DNA of 64,000 bases from Brucella haematophila. GTDB taxonomy: Bacteria > Pseudomonadota > Alphaproteobacteria > Rhizobiales > Rhizobiaceae. The notes below the pieces were generated by a model, which was not told the DNA's origin, did not search any database, and saw only the letters and a program-made list of their open reading frames with translations. Location of the stretch: NCBI RefSeq assembly GCF_005938105.1, contig NZ_VCPE01000013.1, forward strand, positions 62,001-126,000, written 5' to 3'. Numbering within the stretch: position 1 is the first letter of the stretch; each line of letters begins with the position of its first letter. A program made the position numbers and the translations under genes. Of this stretch, positions 329 to 58,655 are shown piece after piece.

Positions 329-1333
329 ATGCGGCTGTTATCTTTGCTGGCCTTCTCTTTCGCGGCAGCCGTTAGTCTGGCCCCTGCGGCACAGGCCAAG
401 GACAAGCTCACCATCTATACCTATGACAGTTTCATTTCCGAATGGGGTCCCGGCCCCAAGGTAAAGGAAAACTTCGAGAAGGAATGCGATTGCGAGATCA
501 ACTGGGTCGCTTCCGCCGATGGTGTGGCCCTGCTCAACCGGCTGAAGCTTGAAGGCGGCAACACCAAGGCCGATATCGTGCTTGGCCTCGACACCAATCT
601 GACCACGGAAGCGCACGCCACTGACTTCTTCGCGCCAAGCGGCATCGATCTTGGCAATGTCAGCGTCCCGGGCGATTTCAAGGACGATATTTTCGTGCCC
701 TATGACTATGGCTATTTCGCCATTGTCTATGATTCGGAAAAGCTGCCCAATCCGCCCAAGAGCCTGAAGGAACTGGTCGAAGGCGACCCGTCGCAAAAGA
801 TCGTGTTACAGGACCCGCGCACCTCGACACCGGGTCTTGGTATGCTACTTTGGATGAAGGCTGTCTACGGCGATCAGGCAGGCGACGCCTGGCAGAAATT
901 GCAGAAGCGCATTCTCACCGTCACGCCGGGCTGGTCGGAAGCCTATGGCCTCTTCACCAAGGGTGAAGCGCCGATGGTGCTCTCCTATACCAGTTCGCCA
1001 GCCTATCATGTCATTGCGGAGAAGACGGATCGCTACAAGGCGCTGGCCTATCCGGAAGGCAATTACCTCCAGATTGAGCTTGCCGCCCAGACGACGACCG
1101 GCGCCAAGAACCCGCTGGCGCAGAAGTTCCTGTCCTTCATGACCGGCCCGGGCTTTCAGGATGTCATCCCGGAAACCAACTGGATGTTCCCGGCAGGCAA
1201 GACATCAACGCCGCTTCCCGCCGCTTTCGACGCCTTGCCGAAACCGGAAAAGACCTTGCTCATTCCATCCGACGAGGTTGCGAAGAACCGCAAGGCCTGG
1301 GTCGATGAATGGCTGGCAGCTACCAGCAAATGA
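329..1333 (+). CDS. thiB: Thiamine ABC transporter, periplasmic substrate-binding protein
   Basis: Periplasmic binding protein that captures thiamine, TMP or TPP and delivers it to ThiPQ. The 334-residue product starts with a Sec signal peptide (about residues 1-22, ending AAQA) and continues with the family opening LTIYTYDSF. The ATG at 329 is chosen over an upstream in-frame ATG at 263 because it begins the signal peptide and follows an AAAGGA ribosome binding site about 10 nt away. It overlaps thiP by 4 bp (ATGA), showing translational coupling. The TPP riboswitch upstream supports the thiamine assignment over other Fe/putrescine-type binding proteins. Confidence 0.95.
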
Positions 1334-2958
1334 TCGGCACTCCAGCAGGCAAAAACACCAGCTCCACCCCCGCGATGAAACCCGTCGCGGGGGCTTTGGC
1401 GCTGGCCTTCCTTGCCGTGCTGGCCGGTGGCGCACTCATCGCGCTCGCTTTTGAAGCCAGCGGCGGCTTCGATGCCGCCACAAATTTCGATGCCTATCTC
1501 TGGCGAACCGCCCGTTTCACCATCATACAGGCCATCGCGTCGAGCCTGCTTTCGATCGCCTTTGCCATTCCCGTTGCGCGCGCCTTGCATTCGGAAGCGC
1601 ATTTTCCCGGACGGGGTTTTATTCTGCGGCTGTTCGCCCTGCCGCTCGCGCTGCCTGCTCTTGTGGCCGTGCTGGGCGTTACCAGCATTTACGGTCGAAA
1701 CGGCCTGATCGCCCATATGTCGGACGCTGCGGGTCATCCGTTCCAGCCGGATATCTATGGCATTACGGGCATTTTGATCGCGCATGTGTTCTTCAACATG
1801 CCGCTGGCGGTGCGGCTCATTCTCGCCGCTTATGAAACGATACCCGCCGATTACTGGAAACTGGCAGCCCAGCTGGGCATGGGCAATCGCGCCCGTTTCC
1901 GGCTGATCGAATGGCCGGTTATCCGTCGCAGCCTCCCCGGCATGGCGGGGCTGATCTTCATGCTGTGCGTGACAAGCTTCACCACCGTGCTGACGCTTGG
2001 CGGCGGTCCGCGCGCGACTACGCTGGAAGTGGCGATCTATCAAAGCCTGCATTTCGATTTCGACCCGGCGCGCGCCGTGGCGCTCACCGTCACCCAGCTC
2101 GGGCTGACCTTGCTGATCCTGCTGGCCTTACGCCTGACCGGGCGTCCCTCTGAAGAAGGCTTTACACACACGGCAACACCGCGCCGTTACGGTAAGCCTC
2201 AGCGGGGCGAACGCCTGTTCAACATCATCGCCATACTCATCGGCTTTCTTTATGTCGCCTTGCCGATTGCGGGCGTGGTCGTATCTGGTCTTGCTGCCGA
2301 ACTCATGCGCCTGCTCAGCGAAAAGACGGTCTGGCGCGCCATCGGCACCAGCCTTGCGCTCGGTTTTTCTGCGGCAACGCTCTCGGTGCTTCTCTCGCTG
2401 GCGCTCGTTTCGGCCCGGGAAGCGGTCAGGAGCAACCGGATAGCCAGCCTGTTCGACACGGGCGCAAGCCTCATTCTCGTCATGCCGCCCATCGTGATCG
2501 GCGCGGGATGGTTCATCCTGCTGCGTCACTTCACCAATCCTTTTGCCATAGCGCCGGTGATGGTGGTCACGGTCAACGCAGCCATGGCCATGCCTTTCGC
2601 AGTCCGGCTGTTGCGCCCAGCCTGGGACACGGCAGCCGCGCGTCACAACCGGCTCTGCGCACAGCTCGGTATTCATGGTTTCAACCGGCTGCGGCTCATC
2701 GACTGGCCGTCAATCCGCAGACCCTTTGGCATGGCTTTCGCCTTTGCCATGGCGCTTTCCATTGGCGACCTTGGCACAATCGCGCTGTTCGGCAGCGATG
2801 CGCTTCAGACCTTGCCCTATCTTCTATTGCAGCGCATGGGCAGTTACCGCACATTCGATGCTGCCGGTCTGGCGCTCATTCTGGGGCTTCTCTGCCTCGG
2901 TCTGATGATGCTTGCCGACCGCGCCGCCACATCCCGGAAAGAGAATTCCGCTTCATGA
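1330..2958 (+). CDS. thiP: Thiamine ABC transporter, permease
   Basis: Inner-membrane permease of the thiamine importer, 542 residues from an ATG that overlaps the thiB stop by 4 bp. It is a fused double permease: two homologous BPD-transp-1 halves, each with about six membrane segments. Each half has an EAA-type loop (A-QLGM-N-R--LIEWP near residues 180-195, [17 protein letters not shown] near residues 445-460) that contacts the ThiQ ATPase. A later ATG at 1375 is possible. It is followed by thiQ with another 4-bp overlap. Confidence 0.95.
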
Positions 2959-3677
2959 CTGCTTCCGCCGACATCCGCCTTACCGACGTGCGCTTCAGCT
3001 ATGGCGAAACCGCAATGCGCTTCGATCTGGCTATTGCGGGCGGCGCTATTGCGGCCATTGTCGGCCCAAGCGGCTCGGGCAAGTCGACGCTCCTGAACCT
3101 CATTGCCGGTTTCGAGACGCCTTCATCGGGCGCCATTGCTATTGGTGGTATCGATGTGACACGTCTTCCGCCGCCGCAACGGCCGGTTTCGATGGTGTTT
3201 CAGGAAAACAATCTGTTCGCCCACCTGACTGTGGCGCAAAATGTCGGCCTCGGTCGCGCGCCCAACCTGAAACTGACAGATGGCGACCGCGCTGCCATTG
3301 CCGACGCGCTGACCCGTGTGGGCCTCAAGGACAAGGAACAGCGCAAGCCCGAAGCCCTGTCCGGCGGTGAACGCCAGCGGGTGGCGATTGCCCGCGTGCT
3401 CGTTCGCGAACGCCCTGTACTGTTGCTGGATGAAGCCTTCGCCTCGCTTGGGCCGGCCTTGCGGCATCAAATGCTTGATCTCGTCAACGAACTGCGCCGT
3501 GAAACCGGCATGACCGTGTTGATGGTCACGCATACGCCGGAAGACGCGCTCTATCTCGATGCACAATTGCTGTTCATCGAAAATGGCGCGGTCGCGGCGC
3601 AAGGCCATGCTCGCGACCTTCTCTCAGAGACTGGACCTGAAGCGCTTCGGCGCTATATCGGTGAGAAGCGAGGGTAA
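2955..3677 (+). CDS. thiQ: Thiamine ABC transporter, ATP-binding protein
   Basis: Cytoplasmic ATPase energising ThiBP, 240 residues. Walker [10 protein letters not shown] is at residues 37-45, the ABC signature [13 protein letters not shown] is near 135-147, and Walker [12 protein letters not shown] is just after it. The ATG overlaps the thiP stop (ATGA). The tight thiB-thiP-thiQ order under one riboswitch fixes the function. No clear terminator was found in the 128 bp before the next gene. Confidence 0.95.
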
Positions 3678-3805
3678 TCTCAAATAGAGTTACGGTTGCG
3701 GACATATTTTGTTCGCAATCCGCCCGGAAGAACCTTATTCAACTCTACTGGGCCGCTTGTACGTCTGCTGGTCTGTGACTAGATTTGCGGACGACCTGAT
3801 GATGT

Positions 3806-5359
3806 ATGAATCGCGAGGATAAAATACTGTTCCGTCACAAGACCCTTATCCGGGCCTCCCTGTGTCTTCCAGTCTCCCTGCCAGAACGGACGCAGCGCAA
3901 TTGGCGGAAAACAGCCGTGGGTTTTGGCTTGTTTGCCGTCGCCCTGATTTCCGGGTGCCAGTCGATCAATTCCAGCAAGGATCTCGGCTTGCAGCCATCG
4001 GATAATCCGGTGACCGTCGATAATGTGACGCGCAACGACAAGCTGGCGCAGATCGGTGCGCAACAGCATCCGCGTATCCTCGCCACCTATGGCGGCGAAT
4101 ATAAGGACCAGCGGCTGGAGCGCATGGTCGCGAAGATCGTGGGCAAGCTCACGACCGTTTCCGACAAGCCGGACCAGACCTACCGCATCACCATTCTTGA
4201 TTCACCCAACATCAACGCCTTCGCCCTGCCCGGCGGCTATCTCTACGTGACGCGCGGCCTGCTCGCGCTTGCCAATGACTCCTCGGAAGTCGCAGCCGTG
4301 ATCGCGCATGAAATGGGCCACGTCGTCGCCAATCACGGCATTCTGCGTCAGGAGAAGGAAGCGGAAACAGAAATCGCCGGTCGCGTGGCCAGCGAAGTGC
4401 TGCATAACGAATCCGCCAGTCGTGAAGCGCTCATTCGCGGCAAGCTGCGCCTTGCCCAGTTCTCGCGCAATCAGGAACTGCAGGCCGATGCTATCGGCAT
4501 CAAGATGATCGGCGAAGCAGGGTATGACCCGTTCGCCTCGGCGCGTTTCCTGCAATCGATGGAGGCCTATACCGGGTTCCGTTCGGTGTCGGGCGCGACC
4601 GACGCCAGCCTCGACTTCCTCGCAAGCCACCCCGCCACACCGCAACGCATCGAACTGGCGCTGGGCCATGCCCGCCGCATCGGCGCGCCGGGTGTCGGCA
4701 CAACCGACCGCGATTCGTTCCTCGATGGCATTGACGGGCTGCTCTACGGCGACTCGCCCAATGAGGGCTATATTCGCGAACAGACCTTCATTCATCCGAA
4801 GCTCGGCGTGACGTTCCGCGCACCCGACGGCTTCACCATCGACAATTCGGCCACGGCAGTCATGGCGAGCGGTCCGGGTGAAGTGGCAATTCGCTTTGAC
4901 GGCGCTTCCCTGCCATCCGGTTCAAGCCTTACCGATTATATCAAGTCGGGCTGGGTGACGGGTCTGGACGAAAGCTCCATTCAGGCAACCACCATCAACG
5001 GATTGCCTGCCGCAACCGCGCGCGCTGCTGCCGACCGCTGGCAGTTCGACATCGTGGTCATTGCCGCAAACAACAAGGTCTATCGTTTCCTGACGGCGGC
5101 ACCGAAAGGCAGCAACGCACTGCTGCCCGCTTCGCAGACCGTGACGCAGTCCTTCCGCCTTCTCACGCCTGCCGAGCAAAACGCCATCAAGCCGCTGCGC
5201 ATCCGCGTCGTGACGGCAAAGCCGGGCGACACAATGGCAAGCTTGTCAGCACGTGTTCAGGGCACCACGCGCAAACTCGAACTGTTCCGCCTGCTCAACG
5301 CCATGCCAGCCGGCGCCACCGTCTCCGTTGGCGACCGCGTGAAGATAATCAGTGAATAA
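3806..5359 (+). CDS. M48-family metalloprotease, probable lipoprotein
   Basis: Zinc metallopeptidase of the BepA/LoiP-like M48 group, probably a periplasmic, membrane-anchored protease for envelope quality control. In this 517-residue reading the zinc motif HEMGH is at 168-172, and the third-ligand region NQELQADAIG lies about 55 residues later. A hydrophobic stretch ends in LISGC with Cys51, which looks like a lipobox. The roughly 33 residues before that stretch are unusually long and basic for a signal peptide, so the true start may be downstream. The C-terminal 50 residues (VVTAKPGDTMASLSARV) resemble a LysM-like domain. The substrate is unknown. Confidence 0.85.
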   Translation: MNREDKILFRHKTLIRASLCLPVSLPERTQRNWRKTAVGFGLFAVALISGCQSINSSKDLGLQPSDNPVTVDNVTRNDKLAQIGAQQHPRILATYGGEYKDQRLERMVAKIVGKLTTVSDKPDQTYRITILDSPNINAFALPGGYLYVTRGLLALANDSSEVAAVIAHEMGHVVANHGILRQEKEAETEIAGRVASEVLHNESASREALIRGKLRLAQFSRNQELQADAIGIKMIGEAGYDPFASARFLQSMEAYTGFRSVSGATDASLDFLASHPATPQRIELALGHARRIGAPGVGTTDRDSFLDGIDGLLYGDSPNEGYIREQTFIHPKLGVTFRAPDGFTIDNSATAVMASGPGEVAIRFDGASLPSGSSLTDYIKSGWVTGLDESSIQATTINGLPAATARAAADRWQFDIVVIAANNKVYRFLTAAPKGSNALLPASQTVTQSFRLLTPAEQNAIKPLRIRVVTAKPGDTMASLSARVQGTTRKLELFRLLNAMPAGATVSVGDRVKIISE

Positions 5360-5360
5360 T

Positions 5361-6050
5361 ATGGAAACCCGCATCGACGCATTGCTTGCAGGCCAGATCG
5401 CTCCACTCGGTCCGCGTAACGCGCCGAGCGCGATCGACAAGCGCCCCGTTTCTGGCAAGGTCCGCGTGACATTGGTCGGTCTGGATTGCGACGAGCAAGG
5501 CGACCGCAAGGTGCATGGCGGGCCTGAAAAGGCCCTGCATCATTATCCTCGCGATCATTACGCCGTGTGGCGCACGGACATTGGCGACAATCATCGGCTT
5601 GGTACAGCTGGCGCTTTCGGCGAAAACATTTCCACCACCGGTCTTGATGAGCACAATGTCGCTGTCGGCGACCGTTTCCGCTTCGGTACGGCGCTGATCG
5701 AAGTTTCTCAAGGGCGTCAGCCGTGCTGGAAGCTCAATGCTCGCTTCGAGACGCCCGATATGGCAATGCGCGTCCAGAAGACCGGCAGAACCGGCTGGTA
5801 CTATCGCGTGCTGGAAGAAGGCGAAGCGCAGACCGGCGACAGCATGGTGCTGGTTGATCGTCTTTCACCCGAATGGTCGCTCCACCGCGTCTGGCACCTG
5901 CTTTATGTCGATATGCTCAATTACGACGAGCTGGCGCTCATGGCGGAAATTCCGCATCTGGCCGACGGCTGGAAGCGCTATGCCATCCGTCGCCTTGAAA
6001 ACCGCAAGGTCGAGGATTGGACAAACCGTCTCGAAGGCGACAAGTCCTGA
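5361..6050 (+). CDS. MOSC domain protein (YiiM-like)
   Basis: 229-residue MOSC-domain protein related to YiiM, a family that uses the molybdenum cofactor, for example to reduce N-hydroxylated compounds. The conserved cofactor-binding cysteine is Cys122 in SQGRQPCWKLNARF, and VHGGPEKALHHY near residue 51 is also typical. The ATG is 1 bp after the protease stop; a GTG at 5352, overlapping that stop, is an alternative start. It is probably co-transcribed with the protease and ends at a strong hairpin terminator. Confidence 0.85.
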   Translation: METRIDALLAGQIAPLGPRNAPSAIDKRPVSGKVRVTLVGLDCDEQGDRKVHGGPEKALHHYPRDHYAVWRTDIGDNHRLGTAGAFGENISTTGLDEHNVAVGDRFRFGTALIEVSQGRQPCWKLNARFETPDMAMRVQKTGRTGWYYRVLEEGEAQTGDSMVLVDRLSPEWSLHRVWHLLYVDMLNYDELALMAEIPHLADGWKRYAIRRLENRKVEDWTNRLEGDKS

Positions 6051-28139: not shown

Positions 28140-29255
28140 TTACTTCTGGAAGTAGTTATACTTGCCGTCTTCACCCTTGCGCCACTCGAACATGACGTAA
28201 GGCGAAAGGCTTGGATCACCCTTCTTGTCGAAAGAGATTTCACCAAGAACAGTCTTGAACGGACCCTTGTCCTTCATTGCGGTTGCAACTTCCTGCGGAT
28301 CGTTGCTGCCAGCTGCATTGGCGGCGCTGACCAGCGACTGCACACCGGCATAAGCGTAGAAGGTATAGGCTTCCGGCTCAAACCCCTTGTCGCGGAACGC
28401 CTTGATGAGTTCAGCATTCGACTTGTCGTCGCGCGGGTCCGGGCCGAAGGTGTTCATGACGCCAGCCACTGCATCACCGGCAATCGAAGCCAGTTCGTTG
28501 GAGACGATGCCGTCACCCGAAATGAACTGCGCCTTGAGGCCCTGATCGGCCATCTGACGGATCAGAAGACCAGCTTCCGGGTGCATGCCACCCCAATAGA
28601 CAGCGGTGATGCCAGCAGCCTTCATCTTGGAAATCAGCGCCGAGAAATCCTTGTCGCCCTGGTTCACGCCTTCATAAAGCGTTTCCTTCATGCCGTTCTC
28701 GTTGAGCGACTTCTTGGTCTCATCGGCGAGGCCCTGACCATAAGGCGTCTTGTCGTGCAGGATGGCAACCTTGCCGTCCTTGTAATGGTCGGCCATGTAC
28801 TTGCCGGCAACGATACCCTGCTGGTCATCACGACGGCAGGTGCGGAAGGTGTTCCACAGTTCACGCTCGGTGAAGGTCGGGTTGGTTGTTCCCGGTGCGA
28901 TCATCAGCACGCCGTTTTCGGCATAGATGTCCGAAGTCGGAATGCTGACGCCGGAATTGAAGTGACCGATGACAAACTGAACGCCATCGCCAACGAACTT
29001 GTTGGCAACCGAAATGCCCTGCTTCGGGTCGGCGGCATCATCGCCATAGACGATGCTGATCTTTTCGCCATTCATGCCGCCCTTGGCATTGGCTTCCGCG
29101 ACAGCGGCTTCAACACCGCGCTTGATCTGTTCGCCAAAGGCTGCCTGGCTACCGGTCAAAGGTGCGCCAACACCAACCATCACATCGGCAAAGGCTGCGC
29201 CGCCAAAAGCGACCAGAGCCGAAAGGCAAACGCCGCAGAACAAAGACTTTTTCAT
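28140..29255 (-). CDS. livJ: Branched-chain amino acid ABC transporter, substrate-binding protein (paralogue 1)
   Basis: 371-residue periplasmic binding protein of the LivJ/LivK type. The signal peptide is [19 protein letters not shown] through AFA (about 23 residues), followed by [18 protein letters not shown], the classic binding-protein opening. The ATG at 29255 has GGGAG about 9 nt upstream. It is strongly similar to the next gene over its whole length, so the two are a tandem duplication. It lies apart from the livHMGF operon and has its own terminator, probably giving separate expression levels. Confidence 0.92.
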
Positions 29256-29320
29256 TTCGATTACTCCCACTTCAAACGTTTCCAGTGAAAACCAACCCAC
29301 CGGCACCGCTCTGTCTCATT

Positions 29321-29375
29321 GTTTTCACGCATTATCCGACGCAAAACCGCTGCGCAGTTTTGCCCGGAAATGCTC
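29321..29375 (+). repeat. Dispersed intergenic repeat, family A (copy 2)
   Basis: Shares TTTTCACGCATTATCCGACG and CGGAAATGCTCAAAG with the copies at 22137 and 41166. Confidence 0.6.
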
Positions 29376-29849
29376 AAAGCACCCTGCCGCCAGACAACTA
29401 TCCCGGCGACCAAATGCGAATTGGAAAGCGCACTCCCGGCAGGAATCGCAGCCGAAGCGGCAGACCGTATGAGAAAACCGATATTCCATATGCCCGTTTC
29501 CGGGCGCAGCTTGGGGGAAATAAAACACCTCCGCCCGAATGATCGGCCTCCTCCCCAGAAGGCGAGATTGAGCGTAGAGAATCACACTACGCGAAATCAC
29601 ATAGACAGGTAAATTCGCAGAGACATAAAAGTAAAGCGTAGAAATCGCCTACTTTCGGCGTTTTCCGCATGAGTTTATGCGGCTACGGCGGCTTCCGTAA
29701 AATCGCCTCTGCCATAATCGACGCAACTCATTGTTTCGAATAGATATTCCATTCTCCAGACCGCACACGTCTATCAACGCAATGCGGTATAACCCATCAA
29801 TAAGAGTCAGCTACTTTTTACAGACCTATATTAGATGCGAGAAAGCAAA

Positions 29850-29875
29850 AATGCCCGGCACGATGGCCGGGCATT
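29850..29875 (-). terminator. Terminator of second BCAA-binding protein gene
   Basis: ATGCCCGGC (29851-29859), 6-nt loop and GCCGGGCAT (29866-29874), with TTTTTGC on the minus strand. It closely resembles the terminator of the paralogue. Confidence 0.9.
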
Positions 29876-29901
29876 TCCAGTTACGCAATAATGCTGCGTT
29901 A

Positions 29902-31020
29902 TTACTTCTGCTGAATGTAGGTATATTTCCCGTCAGCGCCCTTTTCCCACTTGTACATGACGTAACCTGGGAGCTTCGGATCGCCCTTTTCATCGTAGGA
30001 AATATCGCCGAGCACGGTCTTGAACGGACCCTTTGCCTTCAGCGCCTTCGCAACTTCCTGCGGGTCGTTGCTGGCTGCAGCCTTGGCGGCCTGAGCAAGC
30101 GACTGAACGGCAGCGTAGGAGTAAAGCGTGTAGGCTTCCGGCTCAAAACCAGCGTCGCGGAACTTCTTGACAAGTTCAGCATTGTCCGGGTTGTTGCGCG
30201 GATCTGGACCGAAGGTGTTCAGCGTACCGGCAACAGCATCGCCAGCAATCGAAGCCAGTTCGTTCGACACAATACCGTCGCCCGAGATGAACTGAGCCTT
30301 GAGGCCCTGGTCAGCCATCTGACGGATGATCAGGCCAGCTTCCGGATGCAAGCCACCCCAATATACGACTGTGACGCCAGCCTGCTTGAGCTTTGCGATC
30401 AGAGCCGAGAAATCCTTTTCGCCGACGTTTACGCCTTCATAAAGGGTTTCCTTGGTGCCCAGCTCGTTGAGCTTCTTCTTGGTTTCGTCGGCAAGGCCCT
30501 GACCATAAGGGGTCTTGTCGTGAATGACGGCGATCTTCGCGTCCTTGAAGTTGTCGAAGATGTACTGGCCGGCAACGATACCCTGCTGGTCATCACGGCC
30601 GCAGGTACGGAACGTGTTCCAGAGCTGACGCTCGGTATAGACCGGGTTGGTTGCAGCAGGCGAAATTTCGAGAATGCCGTTTTCGGCATAGACTTCCGAA
30701 GCCGGAATCGAAACGCCCGAGTTGAAGTGGCCGACAACATACTTCACGCCATCGGCAGCGAACTTGTTGGCAACCGAAATGCCCTGCTTCGGATCCGAAA
30801 CGTCGTCGCCGAGCGTAATCGCGATCTTCTCGCCGTTGATGCCGCCAGCATCGTTGATTTCCTTGATGGCGGCTTCGGCGCCTTTCTGGATCTGCGCACC
30901 GTAAACGGCATTCGGGCCGGTCAGCGGCGCACCGATGCCCAGAAGTACATCAGCCCATGCAGAGCCGCCAAAAGCCATCACAGCAGCAAGAGCCACGCCC
31001 GAAAAAAGATACTTCTTCAT
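29902..31020 (-). CDS. livJ: Branched-chain amino acid ABC transporter, substrate-binding protein (paralogue 2)
   Basis: 372-residue LivJ-type periplasmic binding protein with signal peptide [19 protein letters not shown] through AWA and the mature start [18 protein letters not shown]. It is collinear with the 28140-29255 product; stretches such as HFNSGVSIP and [16 protein letters not shown]-type segments match closely. The ATG at 31020 follows GGGAGT. It lies next to the liv operon but behind that operon's terminator. The two paralogues may differ in ligand preference. Confidence 0.92.
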
Positions 31021-55895: not shown

Positions 55896-56017
55896 GTCCG
55901 TATTTACTCGTACGAAGGTGATGCAATAAGGAGAGTCGATATTTAATGGCGACCTTCACCACGTATTGGCGAAAGCGTCAACCTTTTGCGGATGAAAAGC
56001 CTGAAAGCGAGAGTTTC

Positions 56018-56680
56018 ATGTCAGATATCGTCACGAACCTGAACACGGTCAAGGCCGCAATCGCCACTGCCGAAAAAGAAGCGCATCGTAACAAAGGCTC
56101 GATCACGCTCGTCGCCGTGTCGAAAACCTTCGATGCGGATGCGATCCGCCCGGCGCTCGATGCCGGACAGCGCGTTTTCGGCGAAAACCGCGTGCAGGAA
56201 GCACAGAGCAAATGGCCTGAACTGCGCGAAGCCTATTCCGGCATCGAACTGCATCTGATCGGCCCGCTGCAATCGAACAAGGCCGCCGATGCCGTTGCCC
56301 TCTTCGACGTCATCGAAACCGTCGACCGCGAGAAGATCGCAGCAGCCCTTGCCGACGAGATCAATAAGCAGGGCAAGAGCCCGAAACTCTATGTGCAGGT
56401 CAATACGGGTCTGGAAGAGCAGAAGGCCGGCATTGCGCCGAAGGATGCCGTTGCGTTCGTCACACGCTGCCGCAGCGAACATGGCCTCGCCATCGAAGGA
56501 CTGATGTGCATTCCACCGGCAGATGAAAATCCGGGACCGCATTTTGCCCTGCTGGAAAAGCTCGCCCGCGAAGCTGGTGTCGAAAAGCTCTCCATGGGCA
56601 TGTCAGGCGATTATGAAACCGCCATCGGCTTCGGTGCGACTTCGGTTCGTGTCGGCTCGGCGATTTTTGGCGGCAGGTAA
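56018..56680 (+). CDS. yggS: YggS-family PLP-binding protein, 3' end rewritten by an insertion
   Basis: 220-residue PLP homeostasis protein (PLPHP). The PLP lysine is Lys36 (LVAVSKTF), and HLIGPLQSNKAADAV and MGMSGDYETAIGFGATSVRVGSAIFG are conserved. The ATG at 56018 has GAGAG 6 nt upstream. The last 31 bp before the final two codons are repeated exactly at 58091-58121, so an insertion has replaced the original ending (GGRSYASPA in the displaced copy) with GGR and a stop. All conserved residues are kept, so the protein should still work. Confidence 0.93.
   Translation: MSDIVTNLNTVKAAIATAEKEAHRNKGSITLVAVSKTFDADAIRPALDAGQRVFGENRVQEAQSKWPELREAYSGIELHLIGPLQSNKAADAVALFDVIETVDREKIAAALADEINKQGKSPKLYVQVNTGLEEQKAGIAPKDAVAFVTRCRSEHGLAIEGLMCIPPADENPGPHFALLEKLAREAGVEKLSMGMSGDYETAIGFGATSVRVGSAIFGGR
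56643..56673. repeat. Direct repeat, left copy (attL-like)
   Basis: 31-bp sequence starting CGGTTCGTGTCGGCTCGG and ending TTTTTGGCGG, inside the yggS coding end. Identical to 58091-58121. Confidence 0.9.
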
Positions 56681-56766
56681 AGCGGCGATGTTTTACAGCT
56701 ATAATTCTCGAGAATTCAGCGTAACATTATGGCGTTCTTCAAGCGTAATCCAGCGAGATTGCTTAG

Positions 56767-57240
56767 ATGGAAGTATCAATTAAAAATTTTCTTAACAACG
56801 GCTACCTGACAATCGGAAAAAGCATGGGAGAAAACGTGTGGGGTATCGGCATTTCGAATTACTTTGATCCCAACACTTGCTCATGGAATATATCAGAGAA
56901 TTCAGAGAATGAACCCACGACCATACAACTACAATCATCATTTAGTACATCCAGCGGCGGCCTTTATTTAGGAATGGGAAGCAACAGCATAGAGCTGGAT
57001 GGATACGATCTCCGCTACGCCGTATTATCCAACGATGAAAGTAACTTAATAGGCCCTTATAAAATAGCCCCCACCACCGTAGATTTAATTGGTATAATTT
57101 GGTCAACTATAGTTGATAGCAGAGATGAAAATTGGAAACTCTTTTCTATTCAGAACGATAAATCAAATTTATACTTTTTTGACAATGTAAAACAGTCTGC
57201 TATATACGATGAAATGTTTTGCATAATAGGAACTATGTAA
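56767..57240 (+). CDS. Orphan protein A of the AT-rich insert
   Basis: 157-residue hypothetical protein, no signal peptide or membrane helix, rich in Asn, Ser, Ile and aromatic residues, predicted mostly beta. Segments align with the second insert gene: LTIG---ENVWGIGIS to LTIG---EKTWAVILT, CSWNISENSENEPTTIQ to TRWNLNYDERYPTAIQ, YLGMGSNSIELDGYDLRYAVLS to YLCVSSNTIVKNGYKLHYSELS, and WKLFSIQNDKS to YTLFYLENDKS. The ribosome binding site is weak. I do not recognise the family. Confidence 0.7.
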   Translation: MEVSIKNFLNNGYLTIGKSMGENVWGIGISNYFDPNTCSWNISENSENEPTTIQLQSSFSTSSGGLYLGMGSNSIELDGYDLRYAVLSNDESNLIGPYKIAPTTVDLIGIIWSTIVDSRDENWKLFSIQNDKSNLYFFDNVKQSAIYDEMFCIIGTM

Positions 57241-57454
57241 AACTGAAATCATATATTTCGTCATACTTATTTTTACCTCGGGTTGCCTCCGGGCATGACT
57301 GGTCATTCCGATATCACAAGCAGCACCAGTATGAACGAGAACGCGTAAGATCGACAATTTGACCTAATAGAAGAACAGTAATACTAAAAGTATTAATTGA
57401 TAAATAATATTAAAATTTTCTGATTCAAATCATCAAGCTTGAGGAGAGTAACCT

Positions 57455-57934
57455 ATGGATGATAATGGATTATTTGGAACATTTGGTTTTTTGACGAAAG
57501 ATCGAAAGAATTTTCTAACAATAGGCGATAATATAGATGAAAAAACATGGGCTGTTATCCTTACAAAAGATTCCGATTTCTATAGTACTCGTTGGAACCT
57601 TAATTATGACGAACGTTACCCTACAGCTATTCAGTATACAAAAAGCTCGGACGCATTTGAAGCAGGGCCTTACCTTTGCGTATCAAGTAATACTATCGTA
57701 AAAAATGGATATAAACTCCATTATTCCGAACTTTCCTATGGAAAAATAGAAGACCAGTTAAAATTTAATATTAAATCTATCGATACGGATCGTGATTATG
57801 TCAATATTTACGAAGATAAAAATTCTAATTATACGCTTTTTTATTTAGAAAACGATAAGAGTGCTTATTTCGCTGAAATAAATTCAAGTGAAACGCCAGA
57901 GGGCGCAAAATTCTTGATGCCGGCATACGCATAA
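57455..57934 (+). CDS. Orphan protein B of the AT-rich insert (paralogue of A)
   Basis: 159-residue hypothetical protein sharing four collinear blocks with the preceding insert gene, which marks an old duplication. It is acidic and Tyr/Asn/Asp-rich, without signal peptide, membrane segment or known catalytic motif. A strong GAGGAG lies 8 nt before the ATG. The 214 bp between the two genes and the 156 bp after it show only AT-rich sequence. Possible roles such as immunity or carbohydrate binding are guesses. Confidence 0.75.
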   Translation: MDDNGLFGTFGFLTKDRKNFLTIGDNIDEKTWAVILTKDSDFYSTRWNLNYDERYPTAIQYTKSSDAFEAGPYLCVSSNTIVKNGYKLHYSELSYGKIEDQLKFNIKSIDTDRDYVNIYEDKNSNYTLFYLENDKSAYFAEINSSETPEGAKFLMPAYA

Positions 57935-58090
57935 GTAATAATAATTAAAAGTAGTTCATTTATTAGAAGTCGGTGCAATCATTGTATATGACTGCGGCTG
58001 ATGTACAGGCACATTCGAACGCAATTGTGCTCTTATAAAGAGACAAGCCGATCAAAAGTGCTATCCATGGTATATTGGAGATCATCCAAC

Positions 58091-58121
58091 CGGTTCGTGT
58101 CGGCTCGGCGATTTTTGGCGG
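58091..58121. repeat. Direct repeat, right copy (attR-like)
   Basis: Exact copy of 56643-56673, followed by the displaced original yggS ending. Confidence 0.9.
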
Positions 58122-58146
58122 ACGTTCCTATGCGTCTCCGGCCTGA
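58091..58146 (+). pseudogene. Displaced 3' end of yggS
   Basis: In the yggS frame it reads VRVGSAIFGGRSYASPA and stop (58144-58146). Without the insert it would complete yggS with six more residues than the present gene, and its stop would overlap the end of the convergent FUSC-like gene. Confidence 0.75.
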
Positions 58147-58655
58147 ACCTCACTGCGCGCTTTGATGCGACCGATGATCCGCGTGTAGACCCAGGCAAGC
58201 GCAATCGCCACGGCGCATCCAAGCGCGATTTCGACAAGCCTTGAAAGGGCGAGCAGCAATTCCTCATTGCGCGTCTGGGCAAAGCGTCCCGCATCCATGA
58301 CAATCACCACGGTTGCGGGCGCCAGCCGCCAATTGATCGGATATTTGTCGATCATCAGGATGAGCAACACCGTCAATGCTGCGCCGAACAGGCTGGCCAG
58401 CGGAGAATAACCGAATATCCAGATCGTCAGCATCCCGATGGTGCAACCGACCGCCGTGTTGATCGCCCGGGCCTGCGCCAATGCCAGCGTTGCGCGCACA
58501 TCCGGATCGGAAATGATCAGGACAGTAATCACGGCCCAGATTGGATGTTCAATCCCCGCCCAGCGAAGTGCGAACCAGCAAATAAGGCAACCGAGCAATG
58601 TCTTCGAGGCATAAAGGAGTGCCTTGCCGGGATTGGTCAGATGCGGAAGCGTCAT
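58128..58655 (-). CDS. FUSC-like membrane protein
   Basis: 175-residue inner-membrane protein with about five hydrophobic helices, including ALLYASKTLLGCLICWFALRW and HPIWAVITVLIISDPDVRATLALAQARAINTAVGCTIGMLT. This resembles the membrane half of FUSC/aromatic acid exporter proteins (ArAE), but the cytoplasmic half is missing, so it is a short family member. GAGG lies 6 nt before the ATG. Its stop overlaps the displaced yggS end. Confidence 0.8.
   Translation of the reverse strand: MTLPHLTNPGKALLYASKTLLGCLICWFALRWAGIEHPIWAVITVLIISDPDVRATLALAQARAINTAVGCTIGMLTIWIFGYSPLASLFGAALTVLLILMIDKYPINWRLAPATVVIVMDAGRFAQTRNEELLLALSRLVEIALGCAVAIALAWVYTRIIGRIKARSEVQAGDA

What the first reader, a model, noticed from the sequence alone, without database searches (positions are those of the whole stretch)
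56643..58146. Small AT-rich element inserted at the 3' end of yggS, bounded by a perfect 31-bp direct repeat
The sequence shows a 31-bp identical repeat at 56643-56673 and 58091-58121. The left copy completes yggS with a new stop; the right copy continues in the yggS frame as GGRSYASPA-stop, which must be the original ending. Between them is about 1.45 kb of strongly AT-rich DNA in a GC-rich core region. Integration into a gene's 3' end with regeneration of the end is a known hallmark of tyrosine-recombinase elements, but there is no integrase here, so it could be a remnant or a mobilisable satellite cassette using yggS as a target.
Basis: partly seen in the sequence, partly recalled or inferred. 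Interest (0 to 1): 0.82.

Follow-up and report, generated by a model that had tools for sequence, protein, structure and literature searches.

The report
AT-rich gene pair inserted after yggS
In one Brucella/Ochrobactrum-type bacterium, a small imported DNA piece with two related genes of unknown function sits at the end of a vitamin-B6 housekeeping gene, flanked by a copied 31-base piece of that gene; relatives have the empty site or other small genes there, so the spot looks like a gene-turnover hotspot rather than a complete mobile element.

Summary
In detail: an exact 31-bp repeat of the yggS 3' end brackets 1,417 bp of AT-rich DNA. Of 35 genus genomes only this one has two copies; G027 and G005 show the empty site with one identical copy. 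The insert carries two paralogous ORFs of no known family and no integrase. New: the gap behind yggS is a hotspot. Remote relatives of the same orphan family lie there in G030, G021 and G004. Clear second copies of the yggS end also occur in G035 (53 bp exact) and a Mesorhizobium MAG (L159, 42 bp at 90%), in 165 loci. In both, the copy is fused to a 3'-end fragment of a convergent neighbour gene; Aquibium carbonis (L114) has such a fragment too. That is the footprint of an incoming gap segment joined illegitimately at the yggS end, not of a bounded element. No integrase was found in 165 loci. I therefore favour recombinational capture over an att pair, but no donor and no neighbour fragment was found for the window itself. 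Mobility is not shown; the cargo's function is unknown.

The parts
55946..56680 (+). yggS (PLP-binding protein family), now ending GGR-stop at the left repeat
   Evidence: ORF; TIGR00044 181.8 bits, cut-off 106.25
56643..56673 (+). left copy of the 31-bp direct repeat (yggS 3' end)
56674..58090 (+). AT-rich insert, 1,417 bp, absent at this site from G027 and G005
56767..57240 (+). orphan ORF A, 157 aa
   Evidence: no Pfam, PHROG or PADLOC family at E 1, no NCBIfam at E 0.1
57455..57934 (+). orphan ORF B, 159 aa, paralogue of A (33% over 123 aa, E 5e-15)
   Evidence: no Pfam, PADLOC, NCBIfam family; three PHROGs of unknown function at E 0.03-0.05
58091..58121 (+). right copy of the 31-bp direct repeat
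58122..58146 (+). displaced original yggS tail, (GGR)SYASPA-stop
   Evidence: in G027/G005 the matching bases follow yggS directly
58128..58655 (-). FUSC-type membrane protein gene, convergent neighbour, patchy in relatives
   Evidence: PF13515 60.1 bits

Best explanation
The insert is a recently acquired, non-autonomous two-gene segment in a gene-turnover hotspot between yggS and its convergent neighbours. Shown: the insertion, the empty site, the yggS-end duplication, and repeated occupation of this gap by one fast-diverging orphan family and by other small genes. Inferred: the incoming DNA was the matching gap of another strain or species, with the genes already behind yggS. It brought its own yggS end (GGR-stop), joined on the left through homology in yggS, and on the right by an illegitimate joint inside the last bases of the resident yggS, so that a whole foreign gap was added in front of the resident one. 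The repeat is the footprint. In other genera the joint lies where the yggS end and the neighbour's 3' end share a short direct microhomology. The cargo is probably kept as strain-specific accessory genes; its function is not known.
For: Empty sites. Two motif copies in 1 of 35 genus genomes and two or more in 3 of 394 family genomes (G000, G035, G213, the last on two contigs). blastn of each yggS end against its own downstream DNA in 165 loci: three clear copies, G035 (E 5e-24), L159 (1e-12), G000 (1e-12); antisense control best 5e-4. In G035 a 74-bp piece, 84% identical to the 3' end of its own convergent neighbour (a thioesterase-like gene, tesB by eye), runs up to the right copy. In L159 a usg-end fragment (82% over 50 bp) overlaps the yggS copy by about 12 shared bases. 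L114 has a usg-end fragment (92% over 50 bp) 1.7 kb before its intact usg, joined to a weak yggS-like stretch. These are the only 2 loci with a usg end outside an intact usg; 60 had a usg-end match. G143 and G213:C6 are 97% identical up to the yggS end and then differ. Orphan-family members at the gap in 4 of 35 genus genomes. Arg-then-stop on the left copy would be about 0.4% in random codons (my arithmetic). Hotspots without mobility genes: PMC5635113 (passages).
Against: For the window itself: no donor (relative of ORF B, or of the insert DNA, elsewhere) in 35 genus genomes; no neighbour-gene fragment recognised before the right copy; the usg-type microhomology of other genera is not evident in this genus; yggS shows no imported tract, its divergence from G027/G005 per 100 bp being like the G027-G005 control. 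Five of the seven other occupied sites (G030, G021, G004, G213:C6, G143) show no second yggS copy. G035 is an incomplete assembly and L159 a MAG.
Confidence: 0.58

Rival explanations
1. CIME-like remnant or satellite: a tyrosine-recombinase element that uses the yggS 3' end as attachment site. The 31-bp repeats are the cores of attL and attR; the integrase was lost or acts in trans.
For: Gene 3' end with regenerated end; repeat length within the 8-60 bp given for att repeats in PMC5704250 (passages); empty sites with one copy; repeat starts at nt 698 (G000) and 690 (G035) of yggS, 8 nt apart; G012 has a displaced decayed yggS tail; 13 integrase-family matches elsewhere in the genome.
Against: None of the 13 integrase matches lies on contig C5; none in 165 yggS loci; no viral contig with the motif in yggS; neighbour-gene fragments fused to the copy in G035 and L159, whose shared bases could also explain the similar repeat starts; no strong inverted arms at the repeat (best 8 of 10).
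Confidence: 0.27
2. Local event: the genes were ancestral behind yggS, the repeat arose by local duplication, and relatives lost the cargo.
For: Orphan-family relatives lie at the same gap in G030, G021 and G004, so the family may be old there.
Against: G027 and G005, closest by yggS (98% and 96%), are empty and colinear through FUSC. The family proteins of G030, G021 and G004 are 15-24% identical to ORF B in the alignments while yggS is 88-95%.
Confidence: 0.1
3. Transposon, insertion sequence or assembly artefact.
For: Small AT-rich insert with flanking repeats.
Against: No known family in the insert; no matching inverted ends; a 31-bp target duplication is long for a transposon (recalled); both junctions lie inside a 173-kb contig.
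Confidence: 0.05

Closest known systems
Hotspots without mobility genes, diversified by recombination at flanking core genes (PMC5635113, passages seen)
   Same: Fixed core neighbours, different small accessory genes, no recognisable mobile element
   Different: Here gaps seem also to be added in tandem with a visible yggS-end footprint, and one orphan family recurs; recombination rate of yggS not measured
CIME, an element that lost integration and transfer genes but kept attL and attR (PMC5704250, passages seen)
   Same: No mobility gene; short direct repeats, one completing a housekeeping gene
   Different: No parent element or integrase at this site in the genomes examined; neighbour-gene fragments at the copy in other genera
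Homology-facilitated illegitimate recombination (name recalled; papers seen only as a search listing)
   Same: One homologous and one illegitimate joint give a duplicated flank end
   Different: Donor DNA not identified; uptake of free DNA by this host not shown

Membership tests
CIME / integrative element | Direct repeats of att size flank the element, one completing the target gene | tested here: met
   31-bp exact repeat, GGR-stop
CIME / integrative element | Empty site with one core copy in relatives | tested here: met
   G027, G005
CIME / integrative element | Related element or integrase using the same site | tested here: not met
   none in 165 yggS loci or the window; distant integrases or longer elements beyond the held flanks could be missed
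CIME / integrative element | Excision and integration by site-specific recombination | not testable with these tools
   needs reads or experiment
Hotspot without mobility genes | Different accessory content between the same core genes in related genomes | tested here: met
   35 genus genomes: FUSC in 10 (in G014 a diverged 122-aa match), gap under 200 bp in 19, other content in 4 (G030, G012, G021, G004), usg not detected and short gap in 2 (G022, G026); my tally
Hotspot without mobility genes | Raised homologous recombination in flanking core genes | tested here: inconclusive
   yggS divergence profile like the G027-G005 control; no tree test
Homology-facilitated illegitimate recombination | Foreign segment with donor flank at the illegitimate joint | tested here: inconclusive
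   seen in G035, L159 and partly L114; not found for the window
Transposon/IS | Transposase and terminal inverted repeats | tested here: not met
Integron gene cassette | attC site at the cassette end | not tested
   no attC search was run

The most novel reading that the evidence does not exclude
The 3' ends of yggS and of its convergent neighbour act together as recombinase-free attachment sites in Rhizobiaceae: short shared bases let whole foreign gaps be stacked in tandem, one small cassette at a time. In Brucella/Ochrobactrum the stacked cargo is a new, very fast-evolving family of small soluble proteins linked to vitamin-B6 genes: of six members seen, five lie behind yggS and one beside the pyridoxal kinase gene pdxY.
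Probability: 0.2. Interest if true: 0.72.

Novelty: new member of a known kind. Interest (0 to 1): 0.45.

Why it matters
It shows, with a readable footprint, how small accessory genes can enter a core-genome gap without any mobility gene, and that the same gap is used repeatedly, in one genus largely by one orphan family. That gives a natural case for asking how hotspots without mobile elements are filled. The neighbours yggS and pdxY make a B6 link of the orphan family worth a look, though it rests on one locus besides yggS.

Tried and rejected
Relatives of the ORFs outside the genus: none in 199 family genomes (ORF A); none besides G000 in 397 order genomes (profile; the other carriers gave no match row there, so they were probably not in the sample); ORF B: no match in plasmids or phages; P0001: one plasmid match at E 0.7, no phage; P0003: no plasmid; no relative in viral contigs (ORF B, P0001) or genome contigs (ORF B). 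Solved structures gave only weak matches (best E 0.0083, 0.026, none, 0.13), not used. A beta-trefoil-like fold came to mind from the sequence but could not be tested. tRNA and Rfam searches were empty; promoter and terminator scans were at shuffle level.

This raised the capture reading and lowered the att reading. L177's match (17 bp, E 0.006) and L057's (E 2e-4) are near the antisense control (best 5e-4) and not counted. The integrase test was faulty: seven of its 13 queries were read on the wrong strand; one search repeats it correctly.

Results against my reading: ORF B against the G021 protein is at shuffle level (295 of 500) and against P0001 weak (22 of 500); P0004 against P0003 is at shuffle level (176 of 500). 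G012's right edge does not match its own yggS end above shuffles (p 0.585); it matches the yggS tails of L003 and L009 (0 of 200 shuffles each; the L009 alignment runs on into shared DNA), and one search did not detect it.

Full report
What is there. An exact 31-bp repeat of the yggS 3' end lies at 56643-56673 and 58091-58121, around 1,417 bp of AT-rich DNA. The left copy ends yggS as GGR-stop; the right copy continues into the original tail GGRSYASPA-stop at 58146. Shuffles reached 16 bp at most. The insert holds two co-oriented ORFs of 157 and 159 aa, paralogues at 33% over 123 residues, E 5e-15, at 36.9% and 33.1% G+C. Neither matches a Pfam or PADLOC family at E 1 or an NCBIfam family at E 0.1; ORF B has three PHROG matches of unknown function at E 0.03-0.05.

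The site in relatives. The window is part of G000, 5.5 Mb in 55 contigs. All 35 genus genomes have yggS. Only G000 has two copies of a degenerate yggS-end motif; 33 have one and G009 none. G027 and G005 carry the same 31 bases once, followed directly by the native tail and a FUSC gene 98% identical as protein. So the insertion is derived. The stretch between yggS and usg (name recalled; NCBIfam did not name it) varies: FUSC in 10 of 35, a gap under 200 bp in 19, other content in 4, usg not detected in 2 (my tally).

Same gap, same orphan family. G030 has a 162-aa AT-rich ORF there and no FUSC; ORF A matches it at E 9e-5 in a pair comparison. G021 has a 156-aa ORF behind an altered yggS tail, first seen as a weak match to the G030 protein, E 0.018. 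A profile of these four found, besides its own four, one more 155-aa member in G030 (E 3.8e-5) and a weak match in G034 (E 0.15). G004 has a 165-aa ORF behind yggS; a profile made without it picked it out of 11,022 frames of fetched loci as the only further ORF at E up to 1, at E 0.0079. So four of 35 genomes carry the family at yggS. The sixth member lies beside a gene that NCBIfam calls pdxY (350.5 bits, cut-off 292); yggS too belongs to a PLP-dependent family by its NCBIfam name. Several pairs of members are at or near shuffle level, so the family is remote. All six proteins are acidic, with no stretch above a hydropathy of 1.42 over 19 residues.

Other genera. In 394 family genomes G000, G035 and G213 had two or more motif copies. 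G035 has a 53-bp exact repeat of its yggS end, 982 bp apart, around one 265-aa ORF. Just before the right copy lies a 74-bp stretch 84% identical to the 3' end of its own convergent neighbour, thioesterase-like by eye. G213 has its two copies on two contigs; C6 has a 95-aa ORF behind yggS, C8 none. G143 is 97% identical to G213:C6 up to the yggS end and then carries other genes. These three assemblies are 66-85% complete.

A systematic test. I compared the last 150 bases of yggS with its own downstream DNA in 165 loci, several from the same genome, with 1.4-6 kb held downstream. Three copies are clear: G035 (53 bp, E 5e-24), L159 (42 bp at 90%, E 1e-12) and G000 (31 bp, E 1e-12). Two more, L114 (E 1.4e-4) and L057 (E 2e-4), are close to the best antisense control (5e-4). 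L159 is a Mesorhizobium MAG, L114 is Aquibium carbonis B2.3. In L159 two genes lie between yggS and the copy, and the copy is fused to a usg-end fragment, 82% over 50 bp, E 4e-8. In L114 one gene, acetyltransferase-like by eye, is followed by a usg-end fragment, 92% over 50 bp, with the intact usg 1.7 kb further on. These were the only two loci with a usg end outside an intact usg; 60 loci had a usg-end match and 65 an intact usg. In those genera the yggS end and the usg end, read on one strand, share bases such as GGCGYGACSAG, and the fusions lie there.

Reading. A foreign gap, bounded by its own yggS end and by part of its neighbour, was added in front of the resident gap: homology on one side, a microhomology joint on the other. 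This explains the neighbour fragments and could explain why repeats start at similar places. For the window the homologous side fits (GGR-stop brought in), but no neighbour fragment was recognised at the right edge and the shared bases are not evident in this genus, so the step is inferred by analogy. The att reading stays open: regenerated gene end, empty site, and G012 with a decayed displaced tail. Against it, no tyrosine recombinase was found in 165 loci plus the window by tblastn with the genome's 13 integrases or by their profile over 6,723 frames, and none of the 13 lies on contig C5. yggS shows no imported tract in G000, which does not favour capture either.

Literature. CIMEs and att repeats of 8-60 bp at gene 3' ends: PMC5704250 (passages). 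Hotspots that lack mobility genes, with more recombination in flanking core genes: PMC5635113 (passages). A search for yggS with integrase and attB gave one paper, on Streptomyces, off topic by its listing; Ochrobactrum, genomic island and yggS (two of three terms) gave 129 papers, of which the ten listed hold no yggS. On these two searches rests my statement that I saw no report of yggS as an integration site.

Noticed in passing
L102 (G030:C10), 1204-1671 minus strand: A member of the orphan family lies between pdxY and a carbonic-anhydrase-like gene (by eye), without flanking repeats; with yggS that makes two B6-related neighbours.
   Followed up: partly
window 28480-30792: Three exact direct repeats (20-34 bp) at one constant spacing of 1,765 bp, probably a tandem pair of paralogous genes.
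   Followed up: no
L047 (G014), 2346-5438: Behind yggS and a diverged FUSC-like stretch lies a 1,030-aa ORF that looks like a large repeat-rich surface protein; usg and acs were not found in the held stretch.
   Followed up: no
L206 (G143:C206), reverse complement about 4640-5760: An acetyltransferase-like reading frame (by eye) and a 167-aa ORF directly behind yggS, where near-identical G213:C6 has a 95-aa ORF.
   Followed up: partly
L159, 4581-6809: Methyltransferase-like and desaturase-like genes (by eye) lie between yggS and a second yggS-end copy fused to a usg-end fragment.
   Followed up: partly
L114, 4560-5181: An acetyltransferase-like gene (by eye) between yggS and an extra usg 3'-end fragment, with the intact usg further downstream.
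   Followed up: partly
window 58128-58655: The FUSC-type gene beside the insert is patchy in the genus: 10 of 35 genomes by my tally.
   Followed up: partly
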